64,000 nt of DNA from NCBI GenBank assembly GCA_023701135.1, contig JAMPXP010000015.1, forward strand, positions 62,001 through 126,000, read 5' to 3'. This DNA is from Desulfobacula sp. (lineage in GTDB: Bacteria; Desulfobacterota; Desulfobacteria; Desulfobacterales; Desulfobacteraceae). Below the pieces are notes generated by a model. It was not told where the DNA came from. It made no database searches and worked only from the letters and a program-made list of their open reading frames with translations. Below, piece by piece: positions 16,212-57,523 of this stretch. Within the stretch, counting starts at the first letter, position 1; every line of letters begins with the position of its first letter. A program made the position numbers and the translations under genes.

Positions 16212-16257
16212 TTTAACCGTATCCTAACCGGACCCGGCTCGGGGAGGATGCTATAAT
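16212..16257 (+). promoter_or_regulatory. gspF promoter with two 11-bp-spaced CTAACC-type repeats
   Basis: TTAACC at 16213 and CTAACC at 16224 lie 11 bp apart and match the repeats found before gspG, the TPS operon and the response regulator gene. A perfect TATAAT stands at 16252-16257, 54 bp before the gspF start. The repeat-to-minus-10 distance is larger here (28 bp instead of 15), so this site is less certain than the others. Confidence 0.5.
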
Positions 16258-16310
16258 AGCCATTTTTCAGAGAGGACCCTGTTGTAAACAAAGAAAAGGA
16301 TCATCATATA

Positions 16311-17558
16311 ATGGCTGTTTTTGAATATACGGCCCTGAATGCCAGGGGCAGGAAAATTACCGGCATGATAGATGCCGAGAGCCTTGCTGCAGGGCAGCAA
16401 AAGCTCAAGGCCCAGGATATTTTTCCCATTTCATTGAACCGGCTTGAGGCCTCGGTTTCCAGCGGGGTTAAGGACCCGGCCCGGGCCTTCTGGAAAAAAG
16501 GGCCCGACCTTGATTTTTTTTCATCGGTCAAATCATCGGAAGTCACCATGATCACCCGGCAGATGTCCACCCTTCTGTCTGCCGGATTCCCTCTGGTCAA
16601 GGCCATTGCCACCCTTGTTCCCCAGACCGGTTCCAAGGCCTTTCAACGGATTCTGTCGCGGGTGAAGGATGCCCTTGAAGAAGGCAGCGGTTTTGCAGAT
16701 GCGCTTTCCGCACATCCCCAGGCCTTTTCCCCGGTGTATGTCAATATGGTCCGGGCCGGAGAATCTTCGGGCACCCTTGAAATCGTGCTGGAGCGGCTGG
16801 CCGATTTTTCGGAAAAACGGGAGGACACCAAGAAACAGATTCAGGCAGCTCTGGCCTATCCCGTGCTCATGGCAGTGATCGGCTTTCTGGTGCTTTTGTT
16901 CCTGCTGACCTATATTGTGCCGGGCATCACGAAGATCTTTACGGACATGAACCATGCCCTGCCCGCACCCACCCAGGTTCTCCTGTCGGTGAGCGCCTTT
17001 TTGAAATCCTTCTGGTGGCTGGTGATGCTCCTGCCGGTGCTTGCCTTTTTCTGTTTTCATTTCATCCGGAAAACAGACCGGGGCGGGGCCGTTATTGATC
17101 AAATCATCATTTCCATTCCCATTGCCGGGAACCTGACCAAAAAGCTGATCGCCGCGAGGTTTTCCAGAACCCTTGGATCATTGATTGAAAACGGGGTGCC
17201 CATGCTCACGGCCCTTGGGATCACCCGGAGCATTTCCGGAAACCGGGTCGTTTCCGACCTCATCCAAAAGGCCGCGGACGCTGTTGAACAGGGCGGCACC
17301 CTGGGCGGGGTCCTTGAAAAGAGCACGGCCTTTCCAAACCTTGCCACCCAGATGATCAAGGTCGGTGAAAAAAGCGGCGAGATGAAAAAAATGCTTGAAA
17401 AATCGGCGGAACTCTTTGAGCGGGAGGTTCAAAACGCCGTGGCCGCCGCCACCTCAATTGTGGAACCGGTCATCATCCTGATCATGGGGGTGGTCATCGG
17501 CTTCATCATCCTGGCCGTCTGCCTGCCCATATTCGAGATCAACGAGCTGATCCGCTAG
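16311..17558 (+). CDS. gspF: Type II secretion inner-membrane platform protein GspF
   Basis: This 415-residue protein is typical for GspF/PilC, with two similar T2SSF domains (about residues 75-195 and 275-400). It starts MAVFEYTALNARGRKITGMI, the classic GspF beginning. The signature GESSGTLEIVLERLADF occurs in the first half and KVGEKSGEMKKMLEKSAELF in the second. Three membrane helices surround about residues 175-210, 225-245 and 380-405. GspF is the polytopic core of the T2SS inner-membrane platform and contacts GspE and GspL. All other gsp genes are on the opposite strand, ending near 18.5 kb, with two genes between, so gspF is transcribed separately from its own promoter. Confidence 0.95.
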   Translation: MAVFEYTALNARGRKITGMIDAESLAAGQQKLKAQDIFPISLNRLEASVSSGVKDPARAFWKKGPDLDFFSSVKSSEVTMITRQMSTLLSAGFPLVKAIATLVPQTGSKAFQRILSRVKDALEEGSGFADALSAHPQAFSPVYVNMVRAGESSGTLEIVLERLADFSEKREDTKKQIQAALAYPVLMAVIGFLVLLFLLTYIVPGITKIFTDMNHALPAPTQVLLSVSAFLKSFWWLVMLLPVLAFFCFHFIRKTDRGGAVIDQIIISIPIAGNLTKKLIAARFSRTLGSLIENGVPMLTALGITRSISGNRVVSDLIQKAADAVEQGGTLGGVLEKSTAFPNLATQMIKVGEKSGEMKKMLEKSAELFEREVQNAVAAATSIVEPVIILIMGVVIGFIILAVCLPIFEINELIR

Positions 17559-17683
17559 GCCTCATCGTTTCTTAATCAAATCATCAGAAAACCGTAATCT
17601 GAAGCAAACAAAAAAGGTGTACCCATGGAAAGCAGGATTGAGAAATCCGTTGGGTCGAAACGATTAAAAAAAGGAGGTGTGGT

Positions 17684-18361
17684 TTGAAAAACAATTTATT
17701 GGCTATGGCTCTGGCCGCTGTGATTCAGGTGGCGGTCTTATCGGGGAACGCGTCCGCTGTAGCGGTTTCTTTTCCGGACTGGGATAATCCTGCCGGGCTT
17801 TCCAAGGTGTCCGTGACCGATCCCCAGGATTGGGGAAATGGAAGAGATATCTTAGGCGCCCGGCACGCCACGGACGGGGAATTCCATTATTTCCGGATGG
17901 ACCTGGCCCAGGCCCCGGGAACCGCGAATTATGCCGGGATCTATGGAATTTACATTGACGCCTTTAGCGGGGGCAGCCCGTCTACCTATTCCTATCTGCC
18001 GAACGAGCCGGGGATTGATTATGCCCTGGACAGCCATTACAATCCCAATATGGCGCAGAATGATCAGGGTTTTTTCCACCATGATTTTCATCAGTGGAAC
18101 AACGGGTTGATGGAAAATCTCTATACCCCGGCTAATCAGCAGACAGGCGCTACGCTGGAATGGATAATCAGCGTCGAGGAAATCGGCAATGATTTTTTCT
18201 GGTTTGCGGCCACCCATGATTTTATTGAAGGCGTTACGCAACTGACTTGGGACAGGACCGATTTCACCGCTTCGGCCCCGGCCCCGGTTCCGGCCCCCTC
18301 GGCCGGACTTCTGTTTGCTTCAGCCCTGCTGGGGCTTTCCCTGGCACGGAGAAAATCCTAA
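17684..18361 (+). CDS. Secreted protein with PEP-CTERM-like sorting tail
   Basis: This 225-residue protein starts at a TTG preceded by a strong AAAGGAGGTG ribosome-binding site. It has a signal peptide ending near GNASA (residue 25) and a C-terminal tail APVPAPSAGLLFASALLGLS followed by LARRKS, that is, motif, hydrophobic helix and basic end. The middle part (from about residue 30 to 195) has aromatic and acidic residues (DWGNGRDILGARHATDGEFH) that recall secreted beta-sandwich domains, but no known domain was identified. It follows gspF by 125 bp on the same strand and may share its transcript. Likely a surface protein handled by exosortase. Confidence 0.78.
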   Translation: MKNNLLAMALAAVIQVAVLSGNASAVAVSFPDWDNPAGLSKVSVTDPQDWGNGRDILGARHATDGEFHYFRMDLAQAPGTANYAGIYGIYIDAFSGGSPSTYSYLPNEPGIDYALDSHYNPNMAQNDQGFFHHDFHQWNNGLMENLYTPANQQTGATLEWIISVEEIGNDFFWFAATHDFIEGVTQLTWDRTDFTASAPAPVPAPSAGLLFASALLGLSLARRKS

Positions 18362-18395
18362 CAACAGATAACCGCTTTACGTAAACTCCCCCCTC

Positions 18396-18445
18396 CCTCA
18401 ATGCCAATGTTGCGAATTCCTCCGGCATTGAGGGGCCTCTCTTTT
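18396..18445. terminator. Bidirectional terminator between convergent genes
   Basis: A 10 bp perfect inverted repeat, CCTCAATGCC at 18396 and GGCATTGAGG at 18424, with an 18-base loop, is followed on the plus strand by a CTCTCTTTTT tract. It lies between the convergent PEP-CTERM-like gene and the TPR gene. Confidence 0.7.
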
Positions 18446-29731: not shown

Positions 29732-29786
29732 TATTAACCGGGTTCCTGTTAGAGCTTAATTAAGTCCGTGTTAGCGGCTCATTAAA
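29732..29786 (-). promoter_or_regulatory. gspG operon promoter with four 11-bp direct repeats
   Basis: TTA(G/A) cores occur at 29749, 29760, 29771 and 29782, each exactly 11 bp apart (read as CTAAC or TTAAT on the minus strand). A TTAATA element at 29737-29732 lies 15 bp from the last repeat and may be the -10. The layout is that of binding sites for PhoB/SphR-type winged-helix regulators, which bind 11-bp direct repeats. Confidence 0.7.
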
Positions 29787-35660: not shown

Positions 35661-35681
35661 TGTTTCACCCTCATCCTTATT

Positions 35682-36377: not shown

Positions 36378-36380
36378 GGC

Positions 36381-38602: not shown

Positions 38603-38607
38603 CCTGA

Positions 38608-47600: not shown

Positions 47601-48633
47601 AAAGGGCTACTAAGATTGGGTCCCATGTTTTGTCAGGGGTATCAACAGGCTTACCGATCTTTAATTCCCTGTCTTTAAATGGATTTGCGACCACCAGGTC
47701 CTCACCCAGCTCTTTTACGCCTGAATCAATCCGGCTGTTTTTTCCCGTGGCCACCTTTTCTGAGGCCACCAGGGCAATGGAGCTTCCCTGGCGGATTGTG
47801 GACAGGGACCGGATCACCCCATCCTGACGGACTATTTTGCCGTAAACCCCCACCTGGCCCACATCGGCCAGGATCGTGCCCCCCGATGCGTTCGCAGCTT
47901 CACCGGTATAATCTGCCGTCAGGGTTTCCCTCAGGTTGGAGCCCGTCCCTATTTCTTCTTTCAGTTCAACCTGCGACCCGGCCGCAAGGATGACCCGGCC
48001 TTCCTCGGCCGAAATGGTCCCGCTGTTTTCCACATTGGCGCCTAATAAAAAAATCCGGCCTCCGGAATCGGATTCCAGGGTCCCCCGGTTTTCCACATCT
48101 TTCGGCCCTTCATAATCGGGGGCATTCATATAGTTCTCAGCATTGTATTTCCACAGCCCGTTTTGAAAATCTGCATCCTTTATATTTAGGGAAGCGGCCA
48201 CCAGGGAGTTCAGATTCACCCGGGAATTTTCTCCGAACAGAATGCCGTTCTGATTCACCAGGTAGATGCTGCCCGTGGCCGTGAGCTTGCCGAAAATCCG
48301 GCTGGGGTCACTGCTGTAGATCCGGTTCAGGGCGATCCCGTCCTGGACCTGTTCAAAATGGGTATGGGCCTCGGAACCGATATCAAAGGACTGCCACTGG
48401 ATCACCACCTTGGGGTCGGTTTGCCGGACCTCCAGATAATGGGCCGCCTTATCGGTGGTGGTGCTCCACCCCGCTCCGGAACCAGATACCGGAATGGGAA
48501 GGGAATCGGCCGGAGGAGGAGCCTTTACTGCATGAATGGGCTTTGCCGTGGCCCAGGCCGGGAAAAAGGATAAATAGGTGCATAAAAAAAGAATGAGGGT
48601 CTTGAAATAAATTCTTATGAATAAGCCTTTCAT
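38608..48633 (-). CDS. Giant filamentous-haemagglutinin-like TpsA exoprotein
   Basis: This 3341-residue protein of the two-partner secretion type is the largest gene of the window. It has a signal peptide (about 8-30, FKTLILFLCTYLSFFPAWAT). The TPS secretion domain is at about 40-190, with VIQWQSFDIGSEAHTHFEQV and IYLVNQNGILFGENSRVNLN, the NQNGI variant of the NPNGI motif. Thousands of residues of beta-helix-like repeats then follow (GTISVTT, GGRIFLLGANVENSGTISAE and similar). The last 25 residues are strongly acidic. It should be exported by the adjacent TpsB and act as a surface adhesin or secreted fibre. It lies directly after tpsB (27 bp gap) and before the ExbB-like gene. Confidence 0.93.
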   Translation of the reverse strand: MKGLFIRIYFKTLILFLCTYLSFFPAWATAKPIHAVKAPPPADSLPIPVSGSGAGWSTTTDKAAHYLEVRQTDPKVVIQWQSFDIGSEAHTHFEQVQDGIALNRIYSSDPSRIFGKLTATGSIYLVNQNGILFGENSRVNLNSLVAASLNIKDADFQNGLWKYNAENYMNAPDYEGPKDVENRGTLESDSGGRIFLLGANVENSGTISAEEGRVILAAGSQVELKEEIGTGSNLRETLTADYTGEAANASGGTILADVGQVGVYGKIVRQDGVIRSLSTIRQGSSIALVASEKVATGKNSRIDSGVKELGEDLVVANPFKDRELKIGKPVDTPDKTWDPILVALSGKIDFPSGDLSIKAGNGGRIYLAPGSSIDVSGSWAEKTAADMVLSAQMNSLELRDEFLQKNGILQGKTIYFLLNEGISIGNISSHLDSRTLSALEHSSSGGTVSLAAGTGDIIVDQGASIDISGGGMDYAAGYVQTTKLVSEGRIYDIADAPDWLTYDRIINYDDNFSKKQKTYIPKHTEGADAGKLTLVAQKIAYEGTLNGSAVQGRYQVNAAEPVDALGYKKSVGTKIPVAGTLDIGGSVSGTAYTDIDPVVYAIVVQHQTPSLASGFDPESGLFPEDRKGVTYLSDDLLSNSGLGKIELKALTGITTGAGTRISLTPGGSLTAVGRRILHQGEILTPGGGVVLRTISNKTTNEFLDTAKKVENPNYVGKDILGPERIELAAGSRISTAGEQIKNLTGKAEVKSSGQMAGGSITLKDETLDGEGVVVRKGAELDVSGGYIIGTDRKITDAGDAGSIDIQGAAIVLDGAVKGHSMTGQNGGRISLHAASVEVVTGGAPELPEGYSTEASLPEYLKDRLVLDDNRFDSTGFSKISLSSVGDLLVNETASLAPSAVKLTLASKKGIIKTSLPLEYIGDSSISLFAGVKLNDFHLGKTDAVVKTGTGVAVTVAPGGTISVEGPGADISGTFNAPAGTISVTTTSVLDTLPLLIRKDARFYALGFNRDSGEYVNDELLLTPENGGEISFSSGGALIMEEGSLADVSGSAPVTLYRTGQRNRLTAYRSASAPGSISLSFNKSTDTEGVSQLNGTFVGNKQQDFLTGASFSLTHTNIDSGWSLTPKILARFSQNGFDHLTLTSYSSLDFNGSQTLSMARGITLDAPVVTGAQDNIITLNAPWIQLRNTYKPLSSPGANNNAVFVANGDFMDADGDMKFSGFSKVSLKATQDIRLSDRYYQNKNYTYTGWDGGLAVTGDLSLTAARIYPTTASEFTLKAGGKISTFSSGVTRTDPIYSALGKLTLEAENIEHNGYIAAPLGRIILNADPEKGRVYLADNSVLTVAGEIAVNYGEVDGTGLNWYGYDKTGKISGADTLIETLPEKSVEIHAHEVIGRDEALINIEGGGTAFGYTFIAGTAGSLDPLSTSGRYVILPNSMGNLPGEAVFLEGNDILPQGVYTLLPEAYAFMEGAIIVEAQGTLSAATVANKTREGYTLAVGYTADQGSGLISSQASLYTIRPASDVRQEGLYESLGIVAGNAGSLEISAPTNILNSRIRAGALNSDYRPGIMTLSGKDVIFSSTRINLGNNFNFDTALNERPDLKDYEDTLYLDPQRLSELGLWELNIGSEEITETIKFEDDNNLTGTRISLTAENDITLGHNAGITGTGEKGSVTLLSSAGKLVMEADSFIRSSYLIGIDAQGMDRKKGVDAQGKIMRGEIKAGKVIQLSSDHLYLTDSTHEKDIQSGFIVEEALWKSFAGLEEIWLSGREEIGFAGNVALAAKTLIVADTPLLANALKNTDITPTFTAKTVSLLNSREKTDKSYAYNTDEFSINADRIFIGQGDVGFSGFNEISLNSSGNLTFVGKGSLNTGNADLTTTAAKVTGTYRWAEDEEGEYTYEALDFTVDAGTGKISMLKKINGTEEANDNIGGKLSFSASSIENSGYIGLTSGVIHFNATGRLNAEGVFEAGAVSMLDGAVVSAKGTRSGNVDYDGGMVVYETQKGTIDLKAGSLTDVSAFTFTDVLTGKKTSGNAGTIAVSAPEGTLDIQGGLAGKSDSGQGGSFLMDAQSFANVSSLVSMLSGGGFKQKIDMRVRKGDVSLDSSVTAREFRLSADEGNLNVGLLHRENDQGETLKTLIKASSETGGGRVELYAGNNLTLSSATGIWAGATGSGADGGEIILGIGAGNNGFMNLGGAALDTSAVDGDDGEVYLRAPLNNTYTDVNLTMNATLTGVSKVTVEGVRLYQDTAITSSDATTWKTHATTLMNRANNISNRLMKEAGLVTQDGTKVTDNDFFFRPGIEVQSTGDLSLNTALDLTDWRWQIGSDEDNKVAPVLTLKAAGNLFINQNILDHPLSTMKDGKLNMDLLLMGTAKDSTRINLAAGAKLSSGDIFAVNPGQGNLALAQQKMIYTEGGDINFASGNNTVIGKVKNDSSGNSDYMTYMKMNYNLGSYTGHIRGLTLGDLTLDGGVIQTATGDISLDVKGDLILKKQTISGKDQVGTIRTTGQPLSVAETGQAPVWNHTYFTFAYNSGGDIQIQTGGSVKMTDLNQNAWYTRVSDIAYDSTGYNEKISEYGWAANYGYGLSATQGIAAMGGGNVTIDAGGDFFAQTGTFGKGDLSVSTRGNLDGRFLNKQGKVSLNSLANFGNASDDQVVEAFDSQIRLTAQGNITLASVLNPTLAGMDYAGAKYPDPKDADGNYIIGIDGQQVLGDPFWNLLYTETASLALTARIGSITLTGAPHSSINGERDKKTNSIKADMAAILPPSLYMTAGKDIVLKKNFYLAPAGEGNLNLYAGNDISAKNTSDSASGDYQLFMSDMDPDDVYKMHSGEGSDLLGDLKNPGLHADYLLHKNDSVTAKVEAKNDIRNIQLAIPKAATLWAGRDIANVNYTGQNLRETDQTTIYAGRDIYFQSNKAQQNPIGILMGGPGLTLVQAGNTIDLGTSQGIQSTGSATNPYLPKGDNDLMVIAGIQNSFSVDELNFFFGDTAFLNLVRAYELSDFNPEVFNGDEDLKKEVEDYLAESGFIEGIDGLRQAGLKFERARAEGNTALADRILADARRILINPLFEGSGNSEGNINLVNSRIFTSGGSGDIFTLARGKINVGLSTIDPPPITRKPASEKKSSGLYTTAGGAVKIFAKDDINVNQSRVMTFAGGDIIAWSDHGDINAGIGSKAAVASSDAYLEKQADGTYKIIYEPPAVGSGIRATAPMEEDAGDIYVTAPEGDIDAGEAGIAGRNVSLAAKRVLNAQNIQATGISIGFAKPAESSGGITGLSGGGGLADAGLMSEESSALASARDRMSEETPEGYSYEPKWVDVQVIGFDEEDEEEEEDENNEDEEGQKT

Positions 48634-48660
48634 TTTTCCTGTCCTTTGTTTGTAACCCGT

Positions 48661-50253
48661 TTAAAACCGGTAATTCAGTTTAAAATACCATTCCTGGTCA
48701 TGGACCTCTGTATCGTCCGTGTCTTCCAGGGCCAGGCCCCAGTCCAGCTTGAAATCAATTTTGTCCTTCCAGGTTCCCTGGACCCCCAGGCCCAGGCCGT
48801 GGATGAAAACCGAATCCCATTCCCCGGGCAGGGTGTCCCGAACCGAGAGCCAGGCCCAGTCATAAAACACATAGGGCACGAGGGGGAGCTGCTTCACAAG
48901 GCTGGGGCTGAAGACCTCCAGGGTGCCGTGCAGGGCGTTGTCGGCGAGCAGTTCGGATTCTTTATACCCCCGGACACTGGTCACGCCTCCGGCCGAATAC
49001 TGTTCGTTGTTGACCAGGGGCTGGTCTGCAATCTGGCCGTCCACCTTGGCAAACAGAGAAAACCCCCTGGGCAGCTCCTGGCGTCTTTCCACGCCTGCGG
49101 TTAGGTAAATATAATTCCCTGTGGCCCCGTACCGTTTGTTCTGAAACTCATCCATATCATTCATCAGAACATTCCTGAAAAGCAGGTTGAGATCCGCACT
49201 GAACTGGGTCACCCCGGTTTCTCCGGCAAGGGTTGAGGCATAGCCGAACATGAGGGGCATATATTCAATGGGGGTGACGGACCCCTGGGAATCCTCTTCA
49301 AAATCCTTCCAGTCCAGTCCCAGGGTCAGGTTATGGTCATACCGGCCCTGGGGGGGCAGGGGGATCATATACCGGAGCCCGGCCATGGTTCCTTTTCCGA
49401 TGACGTTAAATCCTTCGCCACTGGCGGTTTCACTGTCTGAAGCCACAACATAGCCGATCAACAGATGATTCCGGTCCCAGGGGGCCGGCAGGGAATAGGA
49501 GCCGGAAAACACCAGGACTTCACTGGTTTTCTCCGGCGAGGTCTGGAACTGGGCGCTGATGGAATGCCCCTTCTGCCAGAGGTTGTCGTACCGGAGCGAG
49601 GCATTGAGCCGGGTGTCCGTGGTGGTATGGGTGGACCGGTTGTTGAGTTCCAGGCTGCCGTGCAGGGGCAGTTTGTCATCGACCTTCAGTTCCACGTCAA
49701 TGGTCCCCAGCTCCCGTCCCGGAATCAGGACCGGAGACACCTTGAGATCCGGGTTCCGGTTGATCTGGGAGAGTTCCGTCCGGATCTGGGGCAGAAACAG
49801 GATTTCCCCCGGTTTCAGGGCCGGCAGATTGGCTCTGATATGTTCCATGGTAAAATATTTGTTTCCCGCCACCCTCACCCGTTTGATCCGGCTTTCAATC
49901 ACCTGGAGTTTGACAATGCCGGTGTCCACGGTCTGTTCCGGGATATTGACCAGGACCGTGGGATACCCGCTTTCATGAAAGAGGCGTTCCAGGGCATCCC
50001 TGGCCCCTTCCACATCTTCGGCGGTTTTTTTCTCGCCGGTAAAGGCCTGGACCGCCTCCATCAGGCTTTCCTTCTGAAGGACGGTATTGCCTTCAATGGA
50101 AAAGGACCGGATGGCAAAGCTGGGGTTTTCGTTTTCACCTGCCGGGAGAAGGGAGGCTACTGCCAGCACCAGCACCAGCATAAGGGTGGCCATACCAAAG
50201 GGTTTTTTCACGGTAAATTGCTTTTCAGCCTGGGATTTATGGGGGTTCATCAC
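48661..50253 (-). CDS. TpsB outer-membrane transporter (ShlB/FhaC family)
   Basis: This 530-residue protein of the Omp85 superfamily secretes the adjacent TpsA. A signal peptide (about 20-38) is followed by two POTRA domains: FAIRSFSIEGNTVLQKESLM and ESRIKRVRVAGNKYFTMEHI. A 16-strand barrel then starts near LHGSLELNNRSTHTTTDTRL. The loop-6 motif SAGGVTSVRGYKESELLADN with VRGY is intact, and the protein ends in KLNYRF with a terminal Phe. The ATG overlaps the SlyD-thioredoxin stop by 4 bp. It is the only exporter for TpsA in the window. Confidence 0.93.
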   Translation of the reverse strand: MMNPHKSQAEKQFTVKKPFGMATLMLVLVLAVASLLPAGENENPSFAIRSFSIEGNTVLQKESLMEAVQAFTGEKKTAEDVEGARDALERLFHESGYPTVLVNIPEQTVDTGIVKLQVIESRIKRVRVAGNKYFTMEHIRANLPALKPGEILFLPQIRTELSQINRNPDLKVSPVLIPGRELGTIDVELKVDDKLPLHGSLELNNRSTHTTTDTRLNASLRYDNLWQKGHSISAQFQTSPEKTSEVLVFSGSYSLPAPWDRNHLLIGYVVASDSETASGEGFNVIGKGTMAGLRYMIPLPPQGRYDHNLTLGLDWKDFEEDSQGSVTPIEYMPLMFGYASTLAGETGVTQFSADLNLLFRNVLMNDMDEFQNKRYGATGNYIYLTAGVERRQELPRGFSLFAKVDGQIADQPLVNNEQYSAGGVTSVRGYKESELLADNALHGTLEVFSPSLVKQLPLVPYVFYDWAWLSVRDTLPGEWDSVFIHGLGLGVQGTWKDKIDFKLDWGLALEDTDDTEVHDQEWYFKLNYRF

Positions 50254-51533
50254 CGACCTGCTTCCGCCCTTTCAAGATCCTTTATCTGTTCCATTTCCGC
50301 CAGAAAACCGTCGGCATCCTTGAACCCTTCCAGTTTTTTAACCATATTTCCTTTTGCATCCATGAAGACCATCATGGGAAAGCCTTCCTGCCGGTAAAAG
50401 GATTTCAGGCCCTGGTCCAGGTCTGAATTGGCCTTGACAAAGACGAGTCGGTCTTTTAAAAGTTTGATTCTCGGGTCCTTAAAGGTCTGGCTGAACAATT
50501 TTTCGCACCACTGGCACCAGTCGGCATACAGGATCAGTACAGCCGGCTTTTTTTGGAGCCTAGCCGTTTCCAGCCCCTTGTCATGGTCGTCGATCCATGG
50601 AATCTCAAGGTTTTTGAAGGCCGAGGCCTTGGTCAGGGAAATGATTTCCAGGTCGTATTCAAGGGCTTTGCCGGCAAAGGGATGGTTAAAGTCCACCACA
50701 AATCCGGCGCCGTCGGCGGAAATGATTCTTCCTTCCCTGTTTTCCACCGGAAAAGAGGCCCCGATCTCGGGCACAAGCCTCATGGTGATGACATCCCCCT
50801 CCACGGTCAGGGTGGTTTTTCCAAAGGGGGCCTGTTCGCTGAAACCGTGTCGCGCCAGGTTTAGGATCAGGATCTTCTCCCCGGTCACCTCCGTGACTTC
50901 CGATTCAAAATAGGGATTCAGCCTGACCCGGTCTCCTTTTTGCGGCAGGGCCTTGAATTTTTTAAGATAGGCCTGGGCATTGATTTCCAGCCTCAGGGGC
51001 ATGGTTCTCACCGTGGGAAAGGTCTGGGCGGCCTCATCCTTATGAAGGCCAAAGGCCTTTTCCGGAGAAAGGATCACGGTCTTTTTCCCGTTACGACTCA
51101 AACCAAGGACGGCCGATCCAAGCCCCGGGGATTGGGTCCGGCTTCCGGCCACAAGGGTCTGAAACGACAGCCCGGCCGAGCCTTTCACCGCCGAAGGCCC
51201 GGTTCCGGAGATCAGGGTCCCGTCTTCAAGAACCGCCCGGTACCGGACCGAAACCAGGTCCCCGGTCTGGACAATGCCGGGGTCCTCGTCCAGGTAGATG
51301 TCCACGCTGGTTTTACCGGTTCTTTTGGCTTCTTCTACGGCTTCGGCAATCCTTTTCTGAATTTTTTCCTTTTCGGCCTGTCCGGCTTCCCGGTCCGAAG
51401 CCGAAGATCCGGAGGCGCTGCCCTTATTTTCCGCCGGAAGGCCGGTTTGCTTTCCCGGGGTCATGCAGGAGGACAGCAGACCCGAAAAAAGGACGAAGGC
51501 AATAGCCTTGAAAGGCCAGGATTTGAGTTTCAT
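50250..51533 (-). CDS. Lipoprotein with FKBP/SlyD-like and thioredoxin-like domains
   Basis: This 427-residue protein has a lipobox (VLFSGLLSSCM, Cys near 23) and a low-complexity linker. A first FKBP-like part (about 85-180) contains GDLVSVRYRAVLEDGTLISG and VLGLSRNGKKTVILSPEKAF. A SlyD-type part (about 190-305) has FVVDFNHPFAGKALEYDLEI, the SlyD signature. The C-terminal thioredoxin fold (from about 325) has a C-x-x-C site, DWCQWC (Cys340 and Cys343), and ends with GFPMMVFMDAKGN, whose cis-Pro is in place. It could isomerise prolines and reduce or form disulfides in the periplasm. It overlaps the next SlyD-like gene and tpsB by 4 bp each, so it serves the TPS operon. Confidence 0.85.
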   Translation of the reverse strand: MKLKSWPFKAIAFVLFSGLLSSCMTPGKQTGLPAENKGSASGSSASDREAGQAEKEKIQKRIAEAVEEAKRTGKTSVDIYLDEDPGIVQTGDLVSVRYRAVLEDGTLISGTGPSAVKGSAGLSFQTLVAGSRTQSPGLGSAVLGLSRNGKKTVILSPEKAFGLHKDEAAQTFPTVRTMPLRLEINAQAYLKKFKALPQKGDRVRLNPYFESEVTEVTGEKILILNLARHGFSEQAPFGKTTLTVEGDVITMRLVPEIGASFPVENREGRIISADGAGFVVDFNHPFAGKALEYDLEIISLTKASAFKNLEIPWIDDHDKGLETARLQKKPAVLILYADWCQWCEKLFSQTFKDPRIKLLKDRLVFVKANSDLDQGLKSFYRQEGFPMMVFMDAKGNMVKKLEGFKDADGFLAEMEQIKDLERAEAGR

Positions 51534-52348
51534 TTGTTTACCTTTTCCCCATTGTCCAGGATTTCCACGGTGCAGTTCAGGGTCTGGCCGCCAAAGCTAA
51601 GGCCGTAATCCACCACGATATTTTTTTCATTGACCTCGGAAATTCTGCCGATGAGGCCCCCGGTCCGGATCAGGGCCCCGACCTCGGCTTCAATGGTGAC
51701 CCTGACCTCTTTTTCATCCCCGTCGGTCCGGGCCTTGCCCCAGGGAGTATCCACGGTGACAAGGGGATCCGTGATCAGTTTGATGGTTATTTTGTCGGAA
51801 TCCAGGGCAATCACTTCGGCATGGGCTTGCCCGTTTTCCTTAAATAGTTCTCCTATTTCCGGGAGCCGGCCGTGGGCCTCTTGATAAATCGGGCAGGGAA
51901 TGGTCTGGACCCGGGGGACGGTCCTGACCCGTTGAATTTTTCTGTACCGGTGGCTGTCCTCAATCTTATCCGGGACCCTGGATTCAAGGACCACCACCAG
52001 GGATTTCCCTTTTTCCTTGCCCACAAGGGCATGGGCCAGGCCCATACGGATATCGGTGTCCAGAAACTGAACATCCCTGGGTTTCAGGTCCGGCGGGTTT
52101 TCACCCGCCGTAAGGTCCACGGGTTTAAGATTCTGCCGTGGGGCAAACACCCGGGCCTTGGCAACTGATTCATCCGTTGCCAAGGCAGGGGAGGTGGTGT
52201 CCATGACCTCATTGCCTGGGGTCCGGCAGGTATAGTCCACCCGGACCTTTTCTCCTTTTTCAATCCTTGGAATGGGCTCCAGGCCCGCGCATCCTGAAAA
52301 TAGAATCAGGGCCATGGAGAAAAGAACGGTTTTTTGTAGGGTCCTCAT
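51530..52348 (-). CDS. Lipoprotein with SlyD/FKBP-like domain
   Basis: This 272-residue protein is the first gene of the TPS/Ton train. It has a lipobox (MALILFSGCAG, Cys near 20) and an FKBP/SlyD-like fold in two parts: GEKVRVDYTCRTPGNEVMDT near the N terminus, and IRTGGLIGRISEVNEKNIVV plus DYGLSFGGQTLNCTVEILDN near the C terminus, the SlyD-type closing segment. Between them a stretch of about 150 residues resembles no family I can name. The expected proline isomerase active-site aromatics cannot be confirmed, so it may be mainly a chaperone. It shares the operon with the SlyD-thioredoxin protein. Confidence 0.75.
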   Translation of the reverse strand: MRTLQKTVLFSMALILFSGCAGLEPIPRIEKGEKVRVDYTCRTPGNEVMDTTSPALATDESVAKARVFAPRQNLKPVDLTAGENPPDLKPRDVQFLDTDIRMGLAHALVGKEKGKSLVVVLESRVPDKIEDSHRYRKIQRVRTVPRVQTIPCPIYQEAHGRLPEIGELFKENGQAHAEVIALDSDKITIKLITDPLVTVDTPWGKARTDGDEKEVRVTIEAEVGALIRTGGLIGRISEVNEKNIVVDYGLSFGGQTLNCTVEILDNGEKVNK

Positions 52349-52405: not shown

Positions 52406-52460
52406 CTTTAACCACAGACAGGTTAGGCCATCATTAAGGCCGGGTTAGGAGGCGGTTAGA
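52406..52460 (-). promoter_or_regulatory. TPS/Ton operon promoter with four 11-bp direct repeats
   Basis: TTA(G/A) cores at 52423, 52434, 52445 and 52456 are exactly 11 bp apart (read CCTAACC or CTTAAT on the minus strand). TTAAAG at 52411-52406 lies 15 bp from the last repeat and is the likely -10. The predicted transcript begins about 50 bp before the SlyD-like start at 52348. Confidence 0.7.
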
Positions 52461-52542: not shown

Positions 52543-53811
52543 TTATTTCTGAGAGGGGTACACAAAATCACTTGCTTTTCCCCATTTCATGGCATCCTGG
52601 GATGCCCAGTAACCAGCCTTGGATACAGGCATGTTGGCGTCATCCGAAGCATAGGCGACCAGGTTGTCGATCATATCATCGGTGGCGCCTGCAGGTTCGT
52701 TGCTGTACAGCCATTGGGCGGACCAGAAATCATACTGGCCGTTTTTAATGGCGTTGCTGGAAGCGGCTACGCCCTGATAGGTCATGGTTTTGACGGTGGC
52801 GAGGCAGCCGCCGGTCGCGCATTTATCCGCATCGGCATAGCCTACGGCGCCGGGGAGCTGGCCCACACATTTCACTTCATCGGAAGACCCGTTGTTGAAA
52901 TAGGTCACCGGAACAATCCCTAAATTGACCGGGAAGGATCCCGGCAGTGCTTCAACTTGCAGCAGACTGGCATCTCCGCGCATGACGGCGGCATCCAGGG
53001 TGGCGGCGGTGCCGGAACCGGCATGTCTCAGGCAGACCACCATGGGAAGGGAGGCAAGGCTGGGATCAAATTCGTTCCAGTTTGTCACCTGGCCGGAAAA
53101 GATAGAGGTTGCCATGAGGCGGCTCATATTGTTGAAGGGAACCGAAGTGTGGGCAAAAAAACCAAAGGGCACGACAATGGGACGGTCCACCTGGTAGTCA
53201 TTTGCTTCCGGGTCCTGGAGATCGTCCGGGAAATAAACGCTCTGGGTGATATAGCCGCCGCCATTGTTACCCAGCTTCTGGCCTTCACTATACTGTCCAA
53301 AAGTGGTGGCAGCCACGTCGGATGCTCCGATATGAACATCCTGGCAGGTCAGGGTGGTGATGGAGCTACCGACAGCGGGATAAGCCGGGAAAGTGGCGGT
53401 TGCGGCATCGGCCTGCTTCCGCAGGGCGCCGTCACCGCATTCGGTGGTATAATTGGGATCGGCCATTACGGCGCGGACACCGTCATAGGAAGCTTCGGAA
53501 GTATACCGGATCGCAACGGTATCCCCATTGATGCCGCCCCCTGTTCTTCCCTGGATGGGGTCACCACCAAAGCAGACGGCAATACCGGCGTCACGCTTGT
53601 GGGTGGCCTTTTGTGCTGTGTTTTTAGCAGAAGCAACATCCGCGCTGTCGCAGCCCTGGCTGATCAGGAATTCAGGGGCTGCAGCGGTCCAGAACTCGTA
53701 CTGGGCGGAAGCCCCGTAAAGATTGACATTGATCGTTCCTGCCTGGGCGGAAGCTGCTATGGTCAGAGCAGCACCGCCGATTACCATTCCTTTTAAAAGT
53801 TTTTTAAACAT
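52543..53811 (-). CDS. Secreted PstS-like substrate-binding protein
   Basis: This 422-residue protein has a clean signal peptide (MFKKLLKGMVIGGAALTIAA, cleaved after AQA). The mature part shows the type II periplasmic-binding fold. It has NLYGASAQYEFWTAAAPEFL at the start and VVCLRHAGSGTAATLDAAVM in the middle, where R-x-x-GSGT is the phosphate-binding loop motif of PstS-like proteins. It contains about nine cysteines, which is unusual and suggests disulfides in an extracellular protein. It is cut off from any pst transporter genes. It sits after the PEP-CTERM-like gene and under the same repeat-type promoter. It may be a secreted T2SS substrate, but this is inference. Confidence 0.75.
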   Translation of the reverse strand: MFKKLLKGMVIGGAALTIAASAQAGTINVNLYGASAQYEFWTAAAPEFLISQGCDSADVASAKNTAQKATHKRDAGIAVCFGGDPIQGRTGGGINGDTVAIRYTSEASYDGVRAVMADPNYTTECGDGALRKQADAATATFPAYPAVGSSITTLTCQDVHIGASDVAATTFGQYSEGQKLGNNGGGYITQSVYFPDDLQDPEANDYQVDRPIVVPFGFFAHTSVPFNNMSRLMATSIFSGQVTNWNEFDPSLASLPMVVCLRHAGSGTAATLDAAVMRGDASLLQVEALPGSFPVNLGIVPVTYFNNGSSDEVKCVGQLPGAVGYADADKCATGGCLATVKTMTYQGVAASSNAIKNGQYDFWSAQWLYSNEPAGATDDMIDNLVAYASDDANMPVSKAGYWASQDAMKWGKASDFVYPSQK

Positions 53812-53850: not shown

Positions 53851-54567
53851 TTATGCTTTTCTGCGGATTCCCACCAGGCCCAGAAGACCGGAGAACAGCA
53901 GGATAAAGGCGCCGGGCACAGGCACCGGGCTGGAGCCGGCATTCATAACAATGGAACCGTCCGTAAAAATTCTGAAAGAAGCAAGATAGGAGCCTACGCC
54001 AGGATCTGTAGCCGTCTGGTATTTATAAAGATACATGTCCACAAAGCCCTCTTCCGGCAGAACAGCTTCTCCGTTGGCAACGTCCCTACTTAAAAGGCCG
54101 TAAAGGCCAGGGGTAGAGTTGTTATTCATTTTTTTCCAATAGGAGTTGGTCGCGGTGGCAGCCTTTACAGTCTTGGTAGCAGCAGCACCGTAGTTGTTCA
54201 TTACTGAGTTTGAGGCAGTCAGAAAATTACCCAAATTTCCTGTTGCGCCGGGGGCTGTTTGTGAGGTTGTTGCAAAATAGCCATAGTAACCCACACCATC
54301 TCTGGCAAACAGACCCACACTGAGATCATCAAAAGAATTAACGACTGATGAGCCAAAATCGCTAAGGCTGAATGATCCGGCTGCTGCCAGGGTGACATTC
54401 TGTGCGGTAAAATCAAGGTTAAACACACTGCCTAAATCCAGGGCCACTTCCTTGTCGGTTTTGTTGTAAATAACAGCCGTGAGGCTGCCGTTGCTGAAGG
54501 CGGCGGCTGAGCCGGCAATTGCAAACACCATGAAAGCCGCCATTACGCTTACCAAAAACTTTTTCAT
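53851..54567 (-). CDS. Secreted protein with PEP-CTERM-like sorting tail
   Basis: This 238-residue protein has a signal peptide (MKKFLVSVMAAFMVFAIAGS, cleaved near AAA). The tail SPVPVPGAFILLFSGLLGLV followed by GIRRKA is a PEP-CTERM-type tail of Pro motif, hydrophobic helix and basic end. The middle (about 25-205) has VALDLGSVFNLDFTAQNVTL and GVGYYGYFATTSQTAPG, seen in similar secreted proteins of unknown function. It starts 39 bp before the PstS-like gene on the same strand, so the two are co-transcribed from the promoter near 54838. Surface attachment by an exosortase is likely; none is in the window. Confidence 0.78.
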   Translation of the reverse strand: MKKFLVSVMAAFMVFAIAGSAAAFSNGSLTAVIYNKTDKEVALDLGSVFNLDFTAQNVTLAAAGSFSLSDFGSSVVNSFDDLSVGLFARDGVGYYGYFATTSQTAPGATGNLGNFLTASNSVMNNYGAAATKTVKAATATNSYWKKMNNNSTPGLYGLLSRDVANGEAVLPEEGFVDMYLYKYQTATDPGVGSYLASFRIFTDGSIVMNAGSSPVPVPGAFILLFSGLLGLVGIRRKA

Positions 54568-55124
54568 TTCTTTTTTCCTCCTTACGTTAATTTGTTTTCA
54601 ACATCCTATGTTTGGTTCTGGCGGTCCGGCTGTCTTGCAGTGGTTTGGATTCTTTTTGGTTTTTGTTTTTATCCTGGATGGTGGCGTGCGTTTTAAAAAT
54701 TTCCCGTCTTAAGCCGGTTTTTTTTTGCTGCATTCCGTCTCATCCCTTTTTATTCTGCAAGATCCGTTGACTTTCCGGCCCCCGGTCACCCGGGGTGTGG
54801 CTTTTTCTATTGCACGATTGAGTTATACGGGGTCTGTATTAGGTGAGAATTAGACGCAAATTAGACTTTCGCAATAGAATTGTTTTGATGCAAAATATAT
54901 TTTTTATTCTATTATTTCAGAGCGTTAAAAAATTAAAAAAATTTTGGAAAAAATTTGACAGGGCAGGGAATGGCCCGGGTGGGAAAAAAATGCCACAAAA
55001 CCGCCTCAATACTAGCAGCATGTTAGGTTTTGGCGGATATCATGAGGGCCGGATGAGGGAAGCCGAGAAAAAACCAGGTTCGATTGTTAGGGTTTGGTTT
55101 GGACGATCCGGGAGAAAAGATTTT
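54568..55124. other. 557-bp non-coding interval
   Basis: Lies between the PEP-CTERM-like gene and the stop codon of the TPR-SH3 gene. It holds the 11-bp repeat promoter at 54822-54864, a roughly 250-bp predicted leader with a ribosome-binding site (GGAGG) for the PEP-CTERM-like gene, and an AT-rich stretch at 54866-54960. No RNA gene was recognised. A 48-codon lysine-rich minus-strand frame at about 54590-54735 has no convincing ribosome-binding site. Confidence 0.6.
54822..54864 (-). promoter_or_regulatory. PEP-CTERM/PstS-like operon promoter with three 11-bp direct repeats
   Basis: TTAG cores at 54839, 54850 and 54861 are exactly 11 bp apart (read CTAAT on the minus strand). TATAAC at 54827-54822 lies 15 bp from the last repeat and is a near-consensus -10, with the same geometry as at gspG and the TPS operon. 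Confidence 0.7.
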
Positions 55125-56732
55125 TCAGGGCAGAAAAAGGATTTTATGGCCCCAGCCGGTCTTGTCTTTGCCAAGGGAAACCCGGTACCAGTCCGGGTTT
55201 TCTTCCAGGACCCCCAGGCGGTCGCCCTTGATGACCTTGTAAAGGACCGGGGCATTGACTTCCGGCAAAGACCTGATCCGGGCGACCTCCACCCTGACCT
55301 CCACGGTTTGTTCTTCATCTGCCGCAGTTGATGCCTTGGCCGGCGCCAGGGTTTCCGGGACGGGCGGTTCTTCCGGGGCGGCGGCAGCGGTGTCAACGGG
55401 TGCGGGCGGCGGGGCGGTATGACCCGGTCCTGAGCCCGGTGATGCAAAAATACTTTCATGGCCCCAGCCCAGTCGGCTTTCCTCTATCTCCACCAGGAAC
55501 CAGTCCTGGTCTTTGCCCAGGAGGGTCAGGGCCTGGCCCTGTCTGACCCGGTCAATGACCAGGGCATCCGTGGAGGGGGCGGACCGGATATTGCCGGGGT
55601 TGGCCCGGACAGACTGCTGGGCCGGATAGGCCCCGTTGTGTTGCAAAGGATGGAGGGTGGCGGCCCGCCAGGGTTTCCCGGTCCTGTAAAATTCCAGTTT
55701 GGCTGCGTATTCTTCGGGGATGTCGCCCCCGGTTTCCCTGAGCTGGGTGATGAGGGTTTCCTGGAATTCTGCGGCCTTTGAACAATCGCCGGATTCCGCC
55801 GAGGCCGCAGCCAGGGTATCCAGAATATTCAGGTCCGAAGATAGATTTTTGGCCTTCTGGGCCATCTCCAGGGCCTTGGCACCGTTCCGGTATCTGGAAT
55901 CCGGGCAGACCGAGAGCATCCAGGCCAGTTGGTTGAGGGCCCCGGGATTTTCAGGCTCCAGGGTGACGGCGTCCACAAAATCATTGACGGCCTTGCCGTA
56001 GTCACCGGTCTGGTAAAAGGCCAGGCCCCTGGACACATAGAGTTCCGCCGAGGTGGAATCCATTTCCAGGGCCAGAGAATAATCCGCAATGGCCCGGTCA
56101 TAGAATTCTTTTTGGAACCAGGCAATGCCCCGGTTTCTGAGGGCGTTGGCGGATTTCGGGTTCAGGCCCAGGGCCAGGGAATAATCCATGATGGCCCGTT
56201 CCGGCCGTTCTTTTCGGAACCAGGCTGCTCCCCGGTTGTTATAATATTCAGGCACATCGGGATTCAGTTCAATGGCCCGGGTGTGGTCGGCCACGGCCCG
56301 GTCATAGTCCCCGGTGAAATACCGGGCCATGCCCCGGTTGTTGAAGGCGTCGGCCGATGCAGGGTCCAGTTGGAGGGCCCGGTCGTAGTCGGCCAGGGTT
56401 TTGTCATAGTCCCCGGTTTTGAACCGGGCCGCGGCCCGGTTGATATAAAAGGGGGCCGAGTCCGGGCTGAGGTCCAGGGCCCGGGTATAGTCTTTAACGG
56501 CATCGTCGTACCGGCCCTGGATATACCGGACCGCTCCCCGGTTGTTATAGGCCTTGGCATTGCCCGGGTCCGCCTCAATGGCCTTTGAAAAGGCTTCGAC
56601 GGCCTTGTCGTACTGGCCGGTCCGGTTGAAAAACAGTCCCTTTTCATACCAGTCTTCCTGGGAGATTCCCGGCCGGGAAAAGAGCAGGGCCGTCAGCACA
56701 AAGACAAGGATCTGAAAGGCGATTTTCCGCAT
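55125..56732 (-). CDS. Exported TPR protein with two SH3-like domains
   Basis: This 535-residue protein has a signal peptide (about 5-22, FQILVFVLTALLFSRPGIS). About eight tandem TPRs follow (about 28-300), such as YEKGLFFNRTGQYDKAVEAF and NNRGMARYFTGDYDRAVADH. Two SH3b-type domains close the protein: SVRANPGNIRSAPSTDALVI to WGHESIFA (about 380-435) and VARIRSLPEVNAPVLYKVIK to WGHKILFLP (about 480-535). The linker is Pro/Ala/Glu-rich. TPRs bind proteins and SH3b domains bind peptidoglycan or cell wall, so it is a periplasmic scaffold. It starts 6 bp after the response regulator stop and shares its promoter. Confidence 0.82.
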   Translation of the reverse strand: MRKIAFQILVFVLTALLFSRPGISQEDWYEKGLFFNRTGQYDKAVEAFSKAIEADPGNAKAYNNRGAVRYIQGRYDDAVKDYTRALDLSPDSAPFYINRAAARFKTGDYDKTLADYDRALQLDPASADAFNNRGMARYFTGDYDRAVADHTRAIELNPDVPEYYNNRGAAWFRKERPERAIMDYSLALGLNPKSANALRNRGIAWFQKEFYDRAIADYSLALEMDSTSAELYVSRGLAFYQTGDYGKAVNDFVDAVTLEPENPGALNQLAWMLSVCPDSRYRNGAKALEMAQKAKNLSSDLNILDTLAAASAESGDCSKAAEFQETLITQLRETGGDIPEEYAAKLEFYRTGKPWRAATLHPLQHNGAYPAQQSVRANPGNIRSAPSTDALVIDRVRQGQALTLLGKDQDWFLVEIEESRLGWGHESIFASPGSGPGHTAPPPAPVDTAAAAPEEPPVPETLAPAKASTAADEEQTVEVRVEVARIRSLPEVNAPVLYKVIKGDRLGVLEENPDWYRVSLGKDKTGWGHKILFLP

Positions 56733-56737
56733 AGATA

Positions 56738-57460
56738 TTATTCCCTGAACCGGTAGCCCACGCCCCGGACGGTTTCTATGACCGGGGCCGACTGTTTGAG
56801 TTTTTTCCGGAGCCCGGCCACCATGACGTCTATGCTTCTTTCCGCCACAGCAGTCCCTTTTCCGTGGAGGGCCTCCACGATCTGTTTCCGGGTAAAGACC
56901 CAGCCCCTTTTGTCCCCCAGGAGGGTCAACAGGTGAAATTCGCTCAGGGTCAGGCCGATGTCTTCTCCGTTGATATTCACGCTGTGCTTGGCCCGGTCGA
57001 TGACCAGCTCTTCTGCCTGGTGGAACCGGTTGGGAATGTAGGGGCTTCTTTTCTTCCGGCCCCTCAGGACCGTCCTGACCCGGGCCAGGAATTCCCCGAT
57101 GCCGAAGGGGGTGGACATGACGTCATTGGCCCCGGTTTCCAGGCTGGTGATGATGTCTCTGTCGTTGGCCCTGGGCGCCAGCATGATGATGGGAAGGTCC
57201 CTGGTCAGGCGGTCCTCCCGTAACCGGCGGGTCACGGCAAGGCCGTCCATGCCGGCCAGGCGGAGGTCCAGGACGATCAGATCGGGCAGGGCCCGTTTGG
57301 CAAGCCCCAGGGCCTGATCTCCTGAAACGGCCGTCAATACAGAATAACCCTGGCCGGTCAGGCTTTTTTCCAGTTGCTGAACGGCGGCGGCGTTATCCTC
57401 GGCCAAAAGGATGGTAATACCGTCCGTTGTCTTTAATCCTGCGGGGTTCATATAATCCAT
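56738..57460 (-). CDS. OmpR/PhoB-type response regulator with degenerate receiver, orphan
   Basis: This 240-residue protein has a receiver domain (about 15-130) and a winged-helix DNA-binding domain (about 145-238, with YIPNRFHQAEELVIDRAKHS to VAGLRKKLKQSAPVIETVRG). Acidic residues (E21, D22) and the phosphoacceptor D65 (LIVLDLR) are present. The conserved Ser/Thr is Ala95 (PIIMLAPRAND) and the conserved Lys of the K-P motif is Thr117 (VMSTPF). No histidine kinase gene is nearby. The promoter carries four 11-bp repeats like those of the gsp, TPS and PEP-CTERM operons, so it is the prime candidate to bind them and autoregulate. Start at 57460; an ATG at 57451 is possible. Confidence 0.9.
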   Translation of the reverse strand: MDYMNPAGLKTTDGITILLAEDNAAAVQQLEKSLTGQGYSVLTAVSGDQALGLAKRALPDLIVLDLRLAGMDGLAVTRRLREDRLTRDLPIIMLAPRANDRDIITSLETGANDVMSTPFGIGEFLARVRTVLRGRKKRSPYIPNRFHQAEELVIDRAKHSVNINGEDIGLTLSEFHLLTLLGDKRGWVFTRKQIVEALHGKGTAVAERSIDVMVAGLRKKLKQSAPVIETVRGVGYRFRE

Positions 57461-57470
57461 AGGACATCAG

Positions 57471-57523
57471 ATCTAACCGGGTTGTGTTAGAATTTCAATA
57501 GAATCGTGTTACAAACAGGTTAA
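57471..57523 (-). promoter_or_regulatory. Response regulator promoter with four 11-bp direct repeats
   Basis: Cores at 57487 (TTAG), 57498 (ATAG), 57509 (TTAC) and 57520 (TTAA) are exactly 11 bp apart, reading TAAC-type on the minus strand. TTAGAT at 57476-57471 may be the -10; the start codon is only 11 bp further, so the transcript would have almost no leader. Confidence 0.65.

What the first reader, a model, noticed from the sequence alone, without database searches (positions are those of the whole stretch)
16212..57523. One regulon marked by 11-bp-spaced TTAG/CTAA repeat arrays across T2SS, TPS/Ton and secreted-protein operons
Four promoters carry three or four short direct repeats at exactly 11 bp spacing: gspG (29749, 29760, 29771, 29782), TPS/Ton train (52423, 52434, 52445, 52456), PEP-CTERM/PstS-like operon (54839, 54850, 54861) and the response regulator (57487, 57498, 57509, 57520). 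In each, a -10-like hexamer lies 14-15 bp from the last repeat. A two-copy version precedes gspF (16213, 16224). Known fact: PhoB- and SphR-type OmpR-family regulators bind 11-bp direct repeats, and the cyanobacterial Pho box has TTAACC-like cores. Inference: the local OmpR/PhoB-type regulator binds all of them and couples the T2SS, giant exoprotein, Ton motor and secreted proteins into one programme.
Basis: partly seen in the sequence, partly recalled or inferred. Interest (0 to 1): 0.92.

Follow-up and report, generated by a model that had tools for sequence, protein, structure and literature searches.

The report
Phosphate-starvation switches for secretion genes
The repeated DNA marks in front of this bacterium's protein-secretion genes are most likely the docking sites of its phosphate-starvation regulator PhoB, so the cell probably makes this secretion machinery when phosphate runs short, much as an unrelated bacterium, Pseudomonas aeruginosa, is known to do.

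Summary
The arrays are real. Read along the transcribed strand they are CTAA(C/T) units every 11 bp, with a -10-like hexamer 14-15 bp from the start of the last unit, before gspG, the TPS/Ton train, the PEP-CTERM-like/PstS-like pair and the response regulator (RR). The gspF pair is not better than chance. In the whole 4.8-Mb genome exactly four perfect 4-unit YTAA arrays exist (control 0): pstC, phoU-phoB-phoR, gspG and the TPS/Ton lead gene. Seven of eight pstC promoters examined carry four units, the eighth three. A model trained only on pstC and phoU promoters ranks RR, TPS and gspG 1-3 in the window. They are Pho boxes of this lineage (inferred; binding not tested). The most likely binder is the genome's PhoB, on another contig, because the same arrays occur in genomes where no copy of the local RR was found. 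The local RR is itself a Pho target: a PhoB paralogue with a nearly unchanged recognition region but a receiver lacking the conserved Thr and Lys. A second gspG of the genome and 28 gspG loci of relatives lack arrays. By annotation the locus resembles the PhoB-controlled P. aeruginosa hxc/pdt locus. Known kind, new variant.

The parts
29742..29785 (-). 4-unit 11-bp Pho-box array (TTAAT/CTAAC/TTAAT/CTAAC) before gspG
   Evidence: score 21.4 with the pst/phoU-trained model; identical in G013
29732..29737 (-). -10-like hexamer TTAATA, 15 bp from the start of the last unit
   Evidence: Sequence
29214..29684 (-). gspG, first gene of the cluster-linked T2SS operon
   Evidence: Pfam T2SSG 140.5 bits
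19418..29684 (-). T2SS genes (GspG, pseudopilin-like proteins, K, PilN/L-like, M, D, E)
   Evidence: Pfam/NCBIfam
52416..52459 (-). 4-unit Pho-box array (CTAAC/CTAAC/TTAAT/CTAAC) before the TPS/Ton train
   Evidence: score 26.5; arrays at the same spot in G013:C227 (5 units, lead protein 40% identical) and G047 (4 units, 27% identical)
52406..52411 (-). -10-like TTAAAG, 15 bp from the start of the last unit
   Evidence: Sequence
33924..52348 (-). lead protein with a lipobox-like start (by eye, no Pfam hit), FKBP/thioredoxin-like, TpsB, TpsA (3341 aa), ExbB with LamG and DUF2341, ExbD, TonB, Porin_5
   Evidence: Pfam/NCBIfam, translation
54832..54864 (-). 3-unit array CTAAT x3 before the PEP-CTERM-like / PstS-like pair
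   Evidence: the three CTAAT cores are kept in G013
54822..54827 (-). -10-like TATAAC, 15 bp from the start of the last unit
   Evidence: Sequence
53851..54567 (-). protein whose VPVPG...RRKA end resembles PEP-CTERM by eye; no Pfam or NCBIfam hit
52543..53811 (-). PstS/DING-like phosphate-binding-type protein
   Evidence: Pfam PBP_like_2 37.4 bits over cut-off 27; NCBIfam PstS subfamily 60.7 bits under cut-off 206.6
57480..57523 (-). degenerate 4-unit array (TTAAC/GTAAC/CTATT/CTAAC) before the response regulator
   Evidence: top score in the window, 28.7; in G013 three of the four cores and the -10 are the same, the second unit reads ATAAC
57471..57476 (-). -10-like TTAGAT, 14 bp from the start of the last unit, only about 10 bp before the start codon
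   Evidence: Sequence
56738..57460 (-). PhoB paralogue with pseudo-receiver (Thr to Ala, Lys to Thr; phospho-Asp kept)
55125..56732 (-). TPR-SH3 protein directly downstream of the regulator, in the place where a kinase gene often lies
16213..16234 (+). two-unit match before gspF; not supported as a Pho box

Best explanation
The arrays are Pho boxes. When phosphate is short, PhoR phosphorylates PhoB (phoU-phoB-phoR, contig C17). PhoB~P binds head-to-tail to three or four 11-bp CTAA(C/T) repeats that stand in for a -35 element and recruits RNA polymerase to a -10 starting 14-15 bp after the start of the last repeat. This turns on pstCASB, phoU-phoB-phoR and probably the phn operon elsewhere, and in the window a second T2SS, the TPS/Ton train, a PstS-like protein and a PhoB-like pseudo-receiver regulator. 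That local regulator, with a nearly unchanged recognition region, probably binds the same arrays and tunes the programme. Shown by sequence: arrays, spacing, positions, presence at pst/pho promoters across genomes, absence at the other gspG genes examined, degenerate receiver. Inferred: binding, phosphate control, activation, role of the local regulator.
For: Exactly four perfect 4-unit arrays in 4.8 Mb, control 0; two are pstC and phoU-phoB-phoR. A close pstC was found in 8 of 43 genomes; all 8 promoters score 17 of 18, seven with four YTAA units, G042 with three; phoU-led operons of G000, G013 and G016 score 16.5. Of 38 array hits in 43 genomes, 18 lie at pst, phoU or phoB promoters and 6 rows at gspG or TPS promoters of this cluster. 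A model trained only on pstC/phoU sites ranks RR, TPS and gspG first in the window. At the TPS lead gene the array is kept where the lead protein is only 40% (G013) or 27% (G047) identical. The genome's second gspG (C16:40441) and 28 gspG loci of relatives score 9 to 14; only the G000 and G013 cluster copies score 17 (31 of the 36 matches examined). 11-nt direct repeats are the accepted Pho-box unit (PMC4415409, passages).
Against: No binding, expression or phosphate data. G051 has the TPS/Ton cluster with PstS-like and PEP-CTERM-like genes and a 3-unit CTAA array at pst, but no array by the strict definition before the cluster genes. In 404 kb around 21 named ExbB loci only one 3-unit array was found (L113, which is G047), though most of these stretches end before the train's lead promoter. 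14 of the 38 array hits are not tied to Pho or cluster genes, and the reversed control gives 17 over the same genomes, so outside this genome the bare pattern is not specific. The 3-unit, 1-mismatch search is at background (24 forward and reverse hits against 23 control). PhoB and the local RR both score below the curated PhoB cut-off (244 and 179 against 296 bits), so PhoB is named by its phoU-phoR neighbours. The core CTAAC differs from the E. coli CTGTCAT core.
Confidence: 0.88

Rival explanations
1. A private regulon: the local RR, not PhoB, is the main regulator of the window's arrays, which diverged from the PhoB sites.
For: The RR has its own array, its DNA-binding domain is 98.9% identical to the G013 copy and under purifying selection (dN/dS 0.07), and a copy was found only in G000 and G013, the two genomes with the array-bearing T2SS.
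Against: The same sequence and spacing occur at pst/pho promoters of the same genome and at the TPS promoter of G047, where no copy of the RR was found. The recognition region hardly differs from PhoB, so separate specificity is unlikely.
Confidence: 0.08
2. Chance or composition: AT-rich intergenic repeats without regulatory meaning.
For: Over 43 genomes the reversed control pattern also gives hits (17 against 38).
Against: 4 against 0 in this genome; 0 of 200 simulations reach three arrays; positions, orientation and -10 spacing agree; the trained model transfers.
Confidence: 0.02
3. Another OmpR-family regulator of the genome binds the arrays.
For: The genome has five other matches to nearly the full length of the PhoB model besides PhoB and the RR.
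Against: Their DNA-binding domains are 24-34% identical to the RR and 25-37% to PhoB, with different recognition regions, against 62% between RR and PhoB; arrays lie on pst and phoU-phoB-phoR.
Confidence: 0.02

Closest known systems
Pseudomonas aeruginosa hxc-lapA-pdtA-phdA-pdtB-exbB2-exbD2-tonB4-PA0696..PA0701 locus (PMC7035377, passages; PMC4971064, passages)
   Same: A second T2SS, a giant TPS exoprotein with its transporter, ExbB-ExbD-TonB and a putative porin in one locus; these genes form the sigma-VreI (PUMA3) regulon, expressed under phosphate starvation, and the pdtA promoter has a Pho box bound by PhoB.
   Different: In Pseudomonas PhoB acts with the ECF sigma factor VreI at separate -35/-10 elements, and the Pho box lies upstream of the -35. 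Here the box stands where the -35 would be, no sigma-factor domain was seen among the 40 window ORFs scanned with Pfam, and a PhoB-like pseudo-receiver regulator lies in the locus. Protein-level homology to the Pseudomonas genes was not computed.
Pseudomonas fluorescens SBW25 psp (DING protein) beside hxc and a 4083-aa haemagglutinin-domain gene (PMC2225411, passages)
   Same: PstS-like phosphate-binding exoprotein next to a T2SS and a giant haemagglutinin-like gene; psp induced by phosphate limitation and its product secreted mainly by Hxc.
   Different: hxcR was reported not to be phosphate-induced there; here gspG itself has an array.
PhoB box of Desulfovibrio vulgaris (PMC3333781, passages)
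   Same: PhoB of a sulfate reducer recognising direct repeats; targets include pst genes.
   Different: Consensus (c/t)GT(n)AC with a 4-bp spacer there; CTAA(C/T) every 11 bp, usually 3-4 units, here.
Atypical response regulators with pseudo-receivers (PMC12632262, passages; ChxR and HP1043, search listing with abstract starts)
   Same: OmpR/PhoB-type regulator lacking conserved receiver active-site residues.
   Different: This one keeps the phospho-Asp and sits beside an intact PhoB with nearly the same recognition region.

Membership tests
Pho regulon (PhoB box) | Tandem 11-nt direct repeats with a conserved core | tested here: met
   definition from PMC4415409 passages
Pho regulon (PhoB box) | Same repeats at pst and pho promoters | tested here: met
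Pho regulon (PhoB box) | Box close to a -10 in place of the -35 | tested here: met
   14-15 bp from the start of the last unit in the 4 window promoters, not in gspF; transcription starts not mapped
Pho regulon (PhoB box) | PhoB binding and phosphate control | not testable with these tools
   Needs binding and expression experiments
Pho regulon (PhoB box) | E. coli-type core CTGTCAT (not required across species) | tested here: not met
   Core is CTAA(C/T); PMC4415409 notes that the consensus varies between species
PhoB equivalog (TIGR02154) for the local RR | Score over the curated cut-off 296.2 | tested here: not met
   178.7 bits; the genome's own PhoB also misses it with 244.3
hxc/pdt-type locus | T2SS distinct from another T2SS of the genome | tested here: met
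   Second gspG at C16:40441, 69% identical, without array; the rest of that second T2SS was not examined
hxc/pdt-type locus | TpsA/TpsB with ExbB-ExbD-TonB and porin in one train | tested here: met
   order also in named loci
hxc/pdt-type locus | Secreted PstS/DING/LapA-type protein | tested here: inconclusive
   PBP_like_2 over cut-off, PstS subfamily under cut-off; secretion not tested
hxc/pdt-type locus | VreA-VreI-VreR sigma-factor cassette | tested here: inconclusive
   No sigma-factor domain among the 40 window ORFs scanned with Pfam; other window ORFs and the rest of the genome were not searched for it
Atypical response regulator (pseudo-receiver) | Lacks at least one of the five conserved receiver residues | tested here: met
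   Thr to Ala and Lys to Thr in the RR and its G013 copy; T/S and K kept in the other 33 of 36 aligned rows
Atypical response regulator (pseudo-receiver) | Works without phosphorylation | not testable with these tools
   Needs biochemistry; the phospho-Asp is kept

The most novel reading that the evidence does not exclude
The local regulator is a locus-embedded, phosphorylation-insensitive copy of PhoB: PhoB~P switches it on through its own array, and it then occupies the same arrays whatever the phosphate state, latching (or capping) the secretion programme. It would play the part that the sigma factor VreI plays in Pseudomonas, a different solution for giving a phosphate-controlled secretion locus its own second key.
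Probability: 0.3. Interest if true: 0.65.

Novelty: new variant of a known kind. Interest (0 to 1): 0.5.

Why it matters
It gives a concrete, testable Pho box for this order of bacteria, in which one motif predicts pst, pho and probably phn operons and a whole secretion locus. It also suggests that a T2SS + TPS + TonB + phosphate-binding-protein locus under PhoB, known from Pseudomonas, recurs in a distant lineage. That supports the idea that the poorly understood TPS/Ton module serves phosphate scavenging. The pseudo-receiver PhoB paralogue is a natural case for asking how such regulators work beside their intact parent.

Tried and rejected
A position matrix over the full 61-bp pstC/phoU site was over-fitted to the linker bases: it put RR first and TPS fourth but gspG at the background; replaced by an 11-bp unit model. 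The choice of the second model was made after seeing the first. The 3-unit, 1-mismatch genome search is not specific (24 hits against 23 in the control). phoU promoters as a general test: only the three phoU-led operons have arrays; in G047, G049 and G051, which I opened, phoU follows the pst genes and the array lies before the pst genes. In one search nine further pstC rows (about 30-34% identical) were dropped because fewer than 40 bases lay upstream, and two rows are the same G042 place. In one search, 5 of the 36 gspG matches had no locus and were not examined, and two loci had only 171 and 61 bases upstream. gspF as a target was rejected. The hit at 15020 (-) scores 21.1, just above the simulated maximum, but straddles the end of one ORF and lies before a hairpin; not counted. 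The organism's name was not found: the one genome-contig scan went to the ExbB alignment and the tool may leave out the window's own records. No paper on a PhoB paralogue with a degenerate receiver was listed for the terms (0 papers). Pho boxes of this group were looked for (8 of 8 papers listed; 10 of 80 listed; 2 of 2 listed); among the papers listed the only ones on sulfate reducers were on Desulfovibrio. Odds: on re-checking, two rival confidences were lowered (0.10 to 0.08, 0.03 to 0.02) so that the set does not exceed 1; no fact changed them.
Full report
Observation. The four arrays serve genes on the - strand; read that way the units are CTAA(C/T) or TTAA(C/T), and a -10-like hexamer starts 15, 15, 15 and 14 bp after the start of the last unit (gspG TTAATA, TPS/Ton TTAAAG, PEP-CTERM-like operon TATAAC, response regulator TTAGAT). 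In the window, arrays of three or more YTAA units occur three times at 11-bp spacing and once over the other 55 spacings between 5 and 60; none of 200 simulated windows had three. The regulator's array is degenerate (TTAA, GTAA, CTAT, CTAA). The pair before gspF is not separable from chance.

What the arrays are. A genome-wide search for four YTAA units at 11-bp spacing finds exactly four places in 4,805,548 bases, with none for the reversed control: pstC on C16, phoU on C17, gspG and the TPS/Ton lead gene in the window. The C16 place leads pstC-pstA-pstS-pstB (PstC 283.5, PstA 222.5, PstB 396.6 bits, all over their curated cut-offs; the PstS-type protein, 107.4 bits, is under its cut-off) and the C17 place leads phoU-phoB-phoR (PhoU 195.2 bits over cut-off; PhoB 244.3 and PhoR 312.6 under cut-off, named by context). 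A further site, scoring 36.0, lies before phnG on C16.

Independent support from other genomes. Eight of 43 genomes have a close pstC (E <= 1e-60). All eight promoters score 17 of 18; seven have four YTAA units and G042 three plus CGAA. phoU-led operons in G000, G013 and G016 score 16.5; the other phoU rows have no array within about 400 bp (best score 12.5), and in G047, G049 and G051, which I opened, phoU is the last of the pst genes and an array (three units in G051) precedes them. The 4-unit pattern gives 38 hits over 43 genomes against 17 for the control. I placed 24 of the 38: 7 pstC-led, 7 at other pst operons, 3 phoU-led, 1 at phoB, 2 at gspG of this cluster, 4 rows (3 places) at the TPS lead gene. 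Fourteen are unplaced, one of them (G047:C88) not looked at.

Transfer test. A model of the 11-bp unit and the -10, trained only on 11 pstC and phoU promoters (8 and 3, the window genome's own two among them), was run on the window. The top three of all positions are the regulator (28.7), the TPS/Ton lead (26.5) and gspG (21.4); the maximum over 30 simulated windows was 20.8. A fourth hit, 15020 (-), scores 21.1; I take it for chance, which shows how thin the margin is for gspG by score alone. The PEP-CTERM site scores 13.4, within the null, because it has three units. An earlier full-length matrix put gspG at background.

Conservation at the cluster. G013 has the T2SS genes from gspG to gspM and the TPS/Ton genes on the contigs seen. 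Its gspG array is identical; the PEP-CTERM array keeps its three CTAAT cores and the regulator's array three of four, with ATAAC for GTAAC in the second; these stretches are closely similar anyway (86-94% identity), so this is weak evidence. Stronger: its TPS lead gene, only 40% identical in protein, has five units at the same spot. G047, of another family in the same order, has four units before its lead gene (27% identical). G051 has the cluster genes but no strict array there, which counts against universality.

Negative control. The genome has a second gspG (C16:40441, 69% identical). It and 28 gspG loci of relatives have best scores of 9 to 14; the 14 is a CTACTTGGGAA tandem repeat. Only the two cluster-linked gspG score 17 (31 of 36 matches examined). 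So the array marks this T2SS, not T2SS genes in general.

Which regulator. In a tree it falls with its G013 copy inside the PhoB proteins of its own family on a long branch (2.02; family clade support 100/99; its place within the family is unresolved), so it looks like a duplicate that arose within the family. Among 58 genomes a second such regulator was found only in G000 and G013 (E <= 1e-50, at most 48 candidates scored per genome). The conserved Thr is Ala and the conserved Lys is Thr in both; the other 33 of 36 aligned rows keep T/S and K (four of the 36 rows are duplicates). The phospho-Asp is kept. Between G000 and G013 dN/dS is 0.37 for the receiver and 0.07 for the DNA-binding domain, against 0.015 and 0.02 for PhoB: the binding domain is kept, the receiver is relaxed. 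By the definition in PMC12632262 (passages) this is a pseudo-receiver and an atypical response regulator; that paper also notes that changes at T or K need not abolish phosphorylation.

Mechanism. Most likely PhoB~P binds the arrays head to tail next to the -10 (tandem 11-nt units and head-to-tail binding: PMC4415409, passages; box substituting the -35 in E. coli: PMC4971064, passages). The local regulator, itself behind an array, would be made under phosphate limitation and could bind the same sites. Whether it boosts, prolongs or damps the response is open. Its -10 lies only about 10 bp before the first possible start codon, so its message would be nearly leaderless or that promoter or start is misplaced.

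Comparison with the known. In P. aeruginosa the hxc T2SS, lapA, pdtA, pdtB, exbB2-exbD2-tonB4 and PA0696 (putative porin) form one locus under the sigma factor VreI, whose regulon is expressed under phosphate starvation and needs PhoB (PMC7035377, passages); PhoB binds the pdtA promoter and its Pho box is required (PMC4971064, passages). In P. fluorescens SBW25 a PstS-like DING protein gene lies beside hxc and a giant haemagglutinin-domain gene, and the protein leaves mainly by Hxc (PMC2225411, passages). The window has the same kinds of genes; the comparison rests on annotation, not on a computed alignment with Pseudomonas proteins. Differences: another core sequence, box at the -35 position, no sigma-factor domain among the 40 window ORFs scanned, and a pseudo-receiver PhoB paralogue. 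The D. vulgaris PhoB box (PMC3333781, passages) has yet another core.

Verdict. It is most likely the Pho regulon, its main regulator is most likely the ordinary PhoB, and the local regulator is an unusual member of it. New variant of a known kind.

Noticed in passing
L027 (G000:C16) 324-410: Three-unit and two-unit CTAA arrays before a small ORF, an HMA_2-domain ORF and a calcium-type P-ATPase: a possible further Pho target.
   Followed up: partly
L027 (G000:C16) 5527-5665: Divergent array-like sites (scores 36.0 and 32.0): one before phnG (C-P lyase), one facing an oppositely oriented small gene.
   Followed up: partly
window 14977-15020 (-): Array-like site scoring 21.1 at the end of ORF 14995-16209, ahead of a hairpin and a fused ATP sulfurylase/APS kinase gene; probably chance.
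   Followed up: partly
L113-L133 (21 loci of genome contigs): TpsA-like match in 21 of 21 loci with the full-length ExbB-LamG-DUF2341 protein (L113 is G047); ExbD and TonB in 20 of 21 (L126 ends early), Porin_5 in 19 of 21; records titled as various Deltaproteobacteria, Geobacter, Nitrospirae and one Verrucomicrobia.
   Followed up: partly
L125 15521-16240 (+): A PhoB-type regulator with intact receiver residues lies directly behind the TPS/Ton module in a MAG titled Deltaproteobacteria, followed by a gene that looks AraC-like by eye.
   Followed up: partly
window cluster against G013 (L039, L193, L194, L246): Very uneven divergence: gspG 100%, TpsB 94%, but TpsA pieces 48-56%, lead protein 40%, PstS-like 62% identical; dS of the RR 0.17 against 0.47 for PhoB. 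Suggests recombination or exchange of cassettes.
   Followed up: no
L193 2736-2808: Partial duplicate of the RR promoter region upstream of the RR in G013.
   Followed up: no
window 55125-56732: A TPR-SH3 protein follows the regulator where a histidine kinase gene often lies; 92% identical in G013.
   Followed up: no
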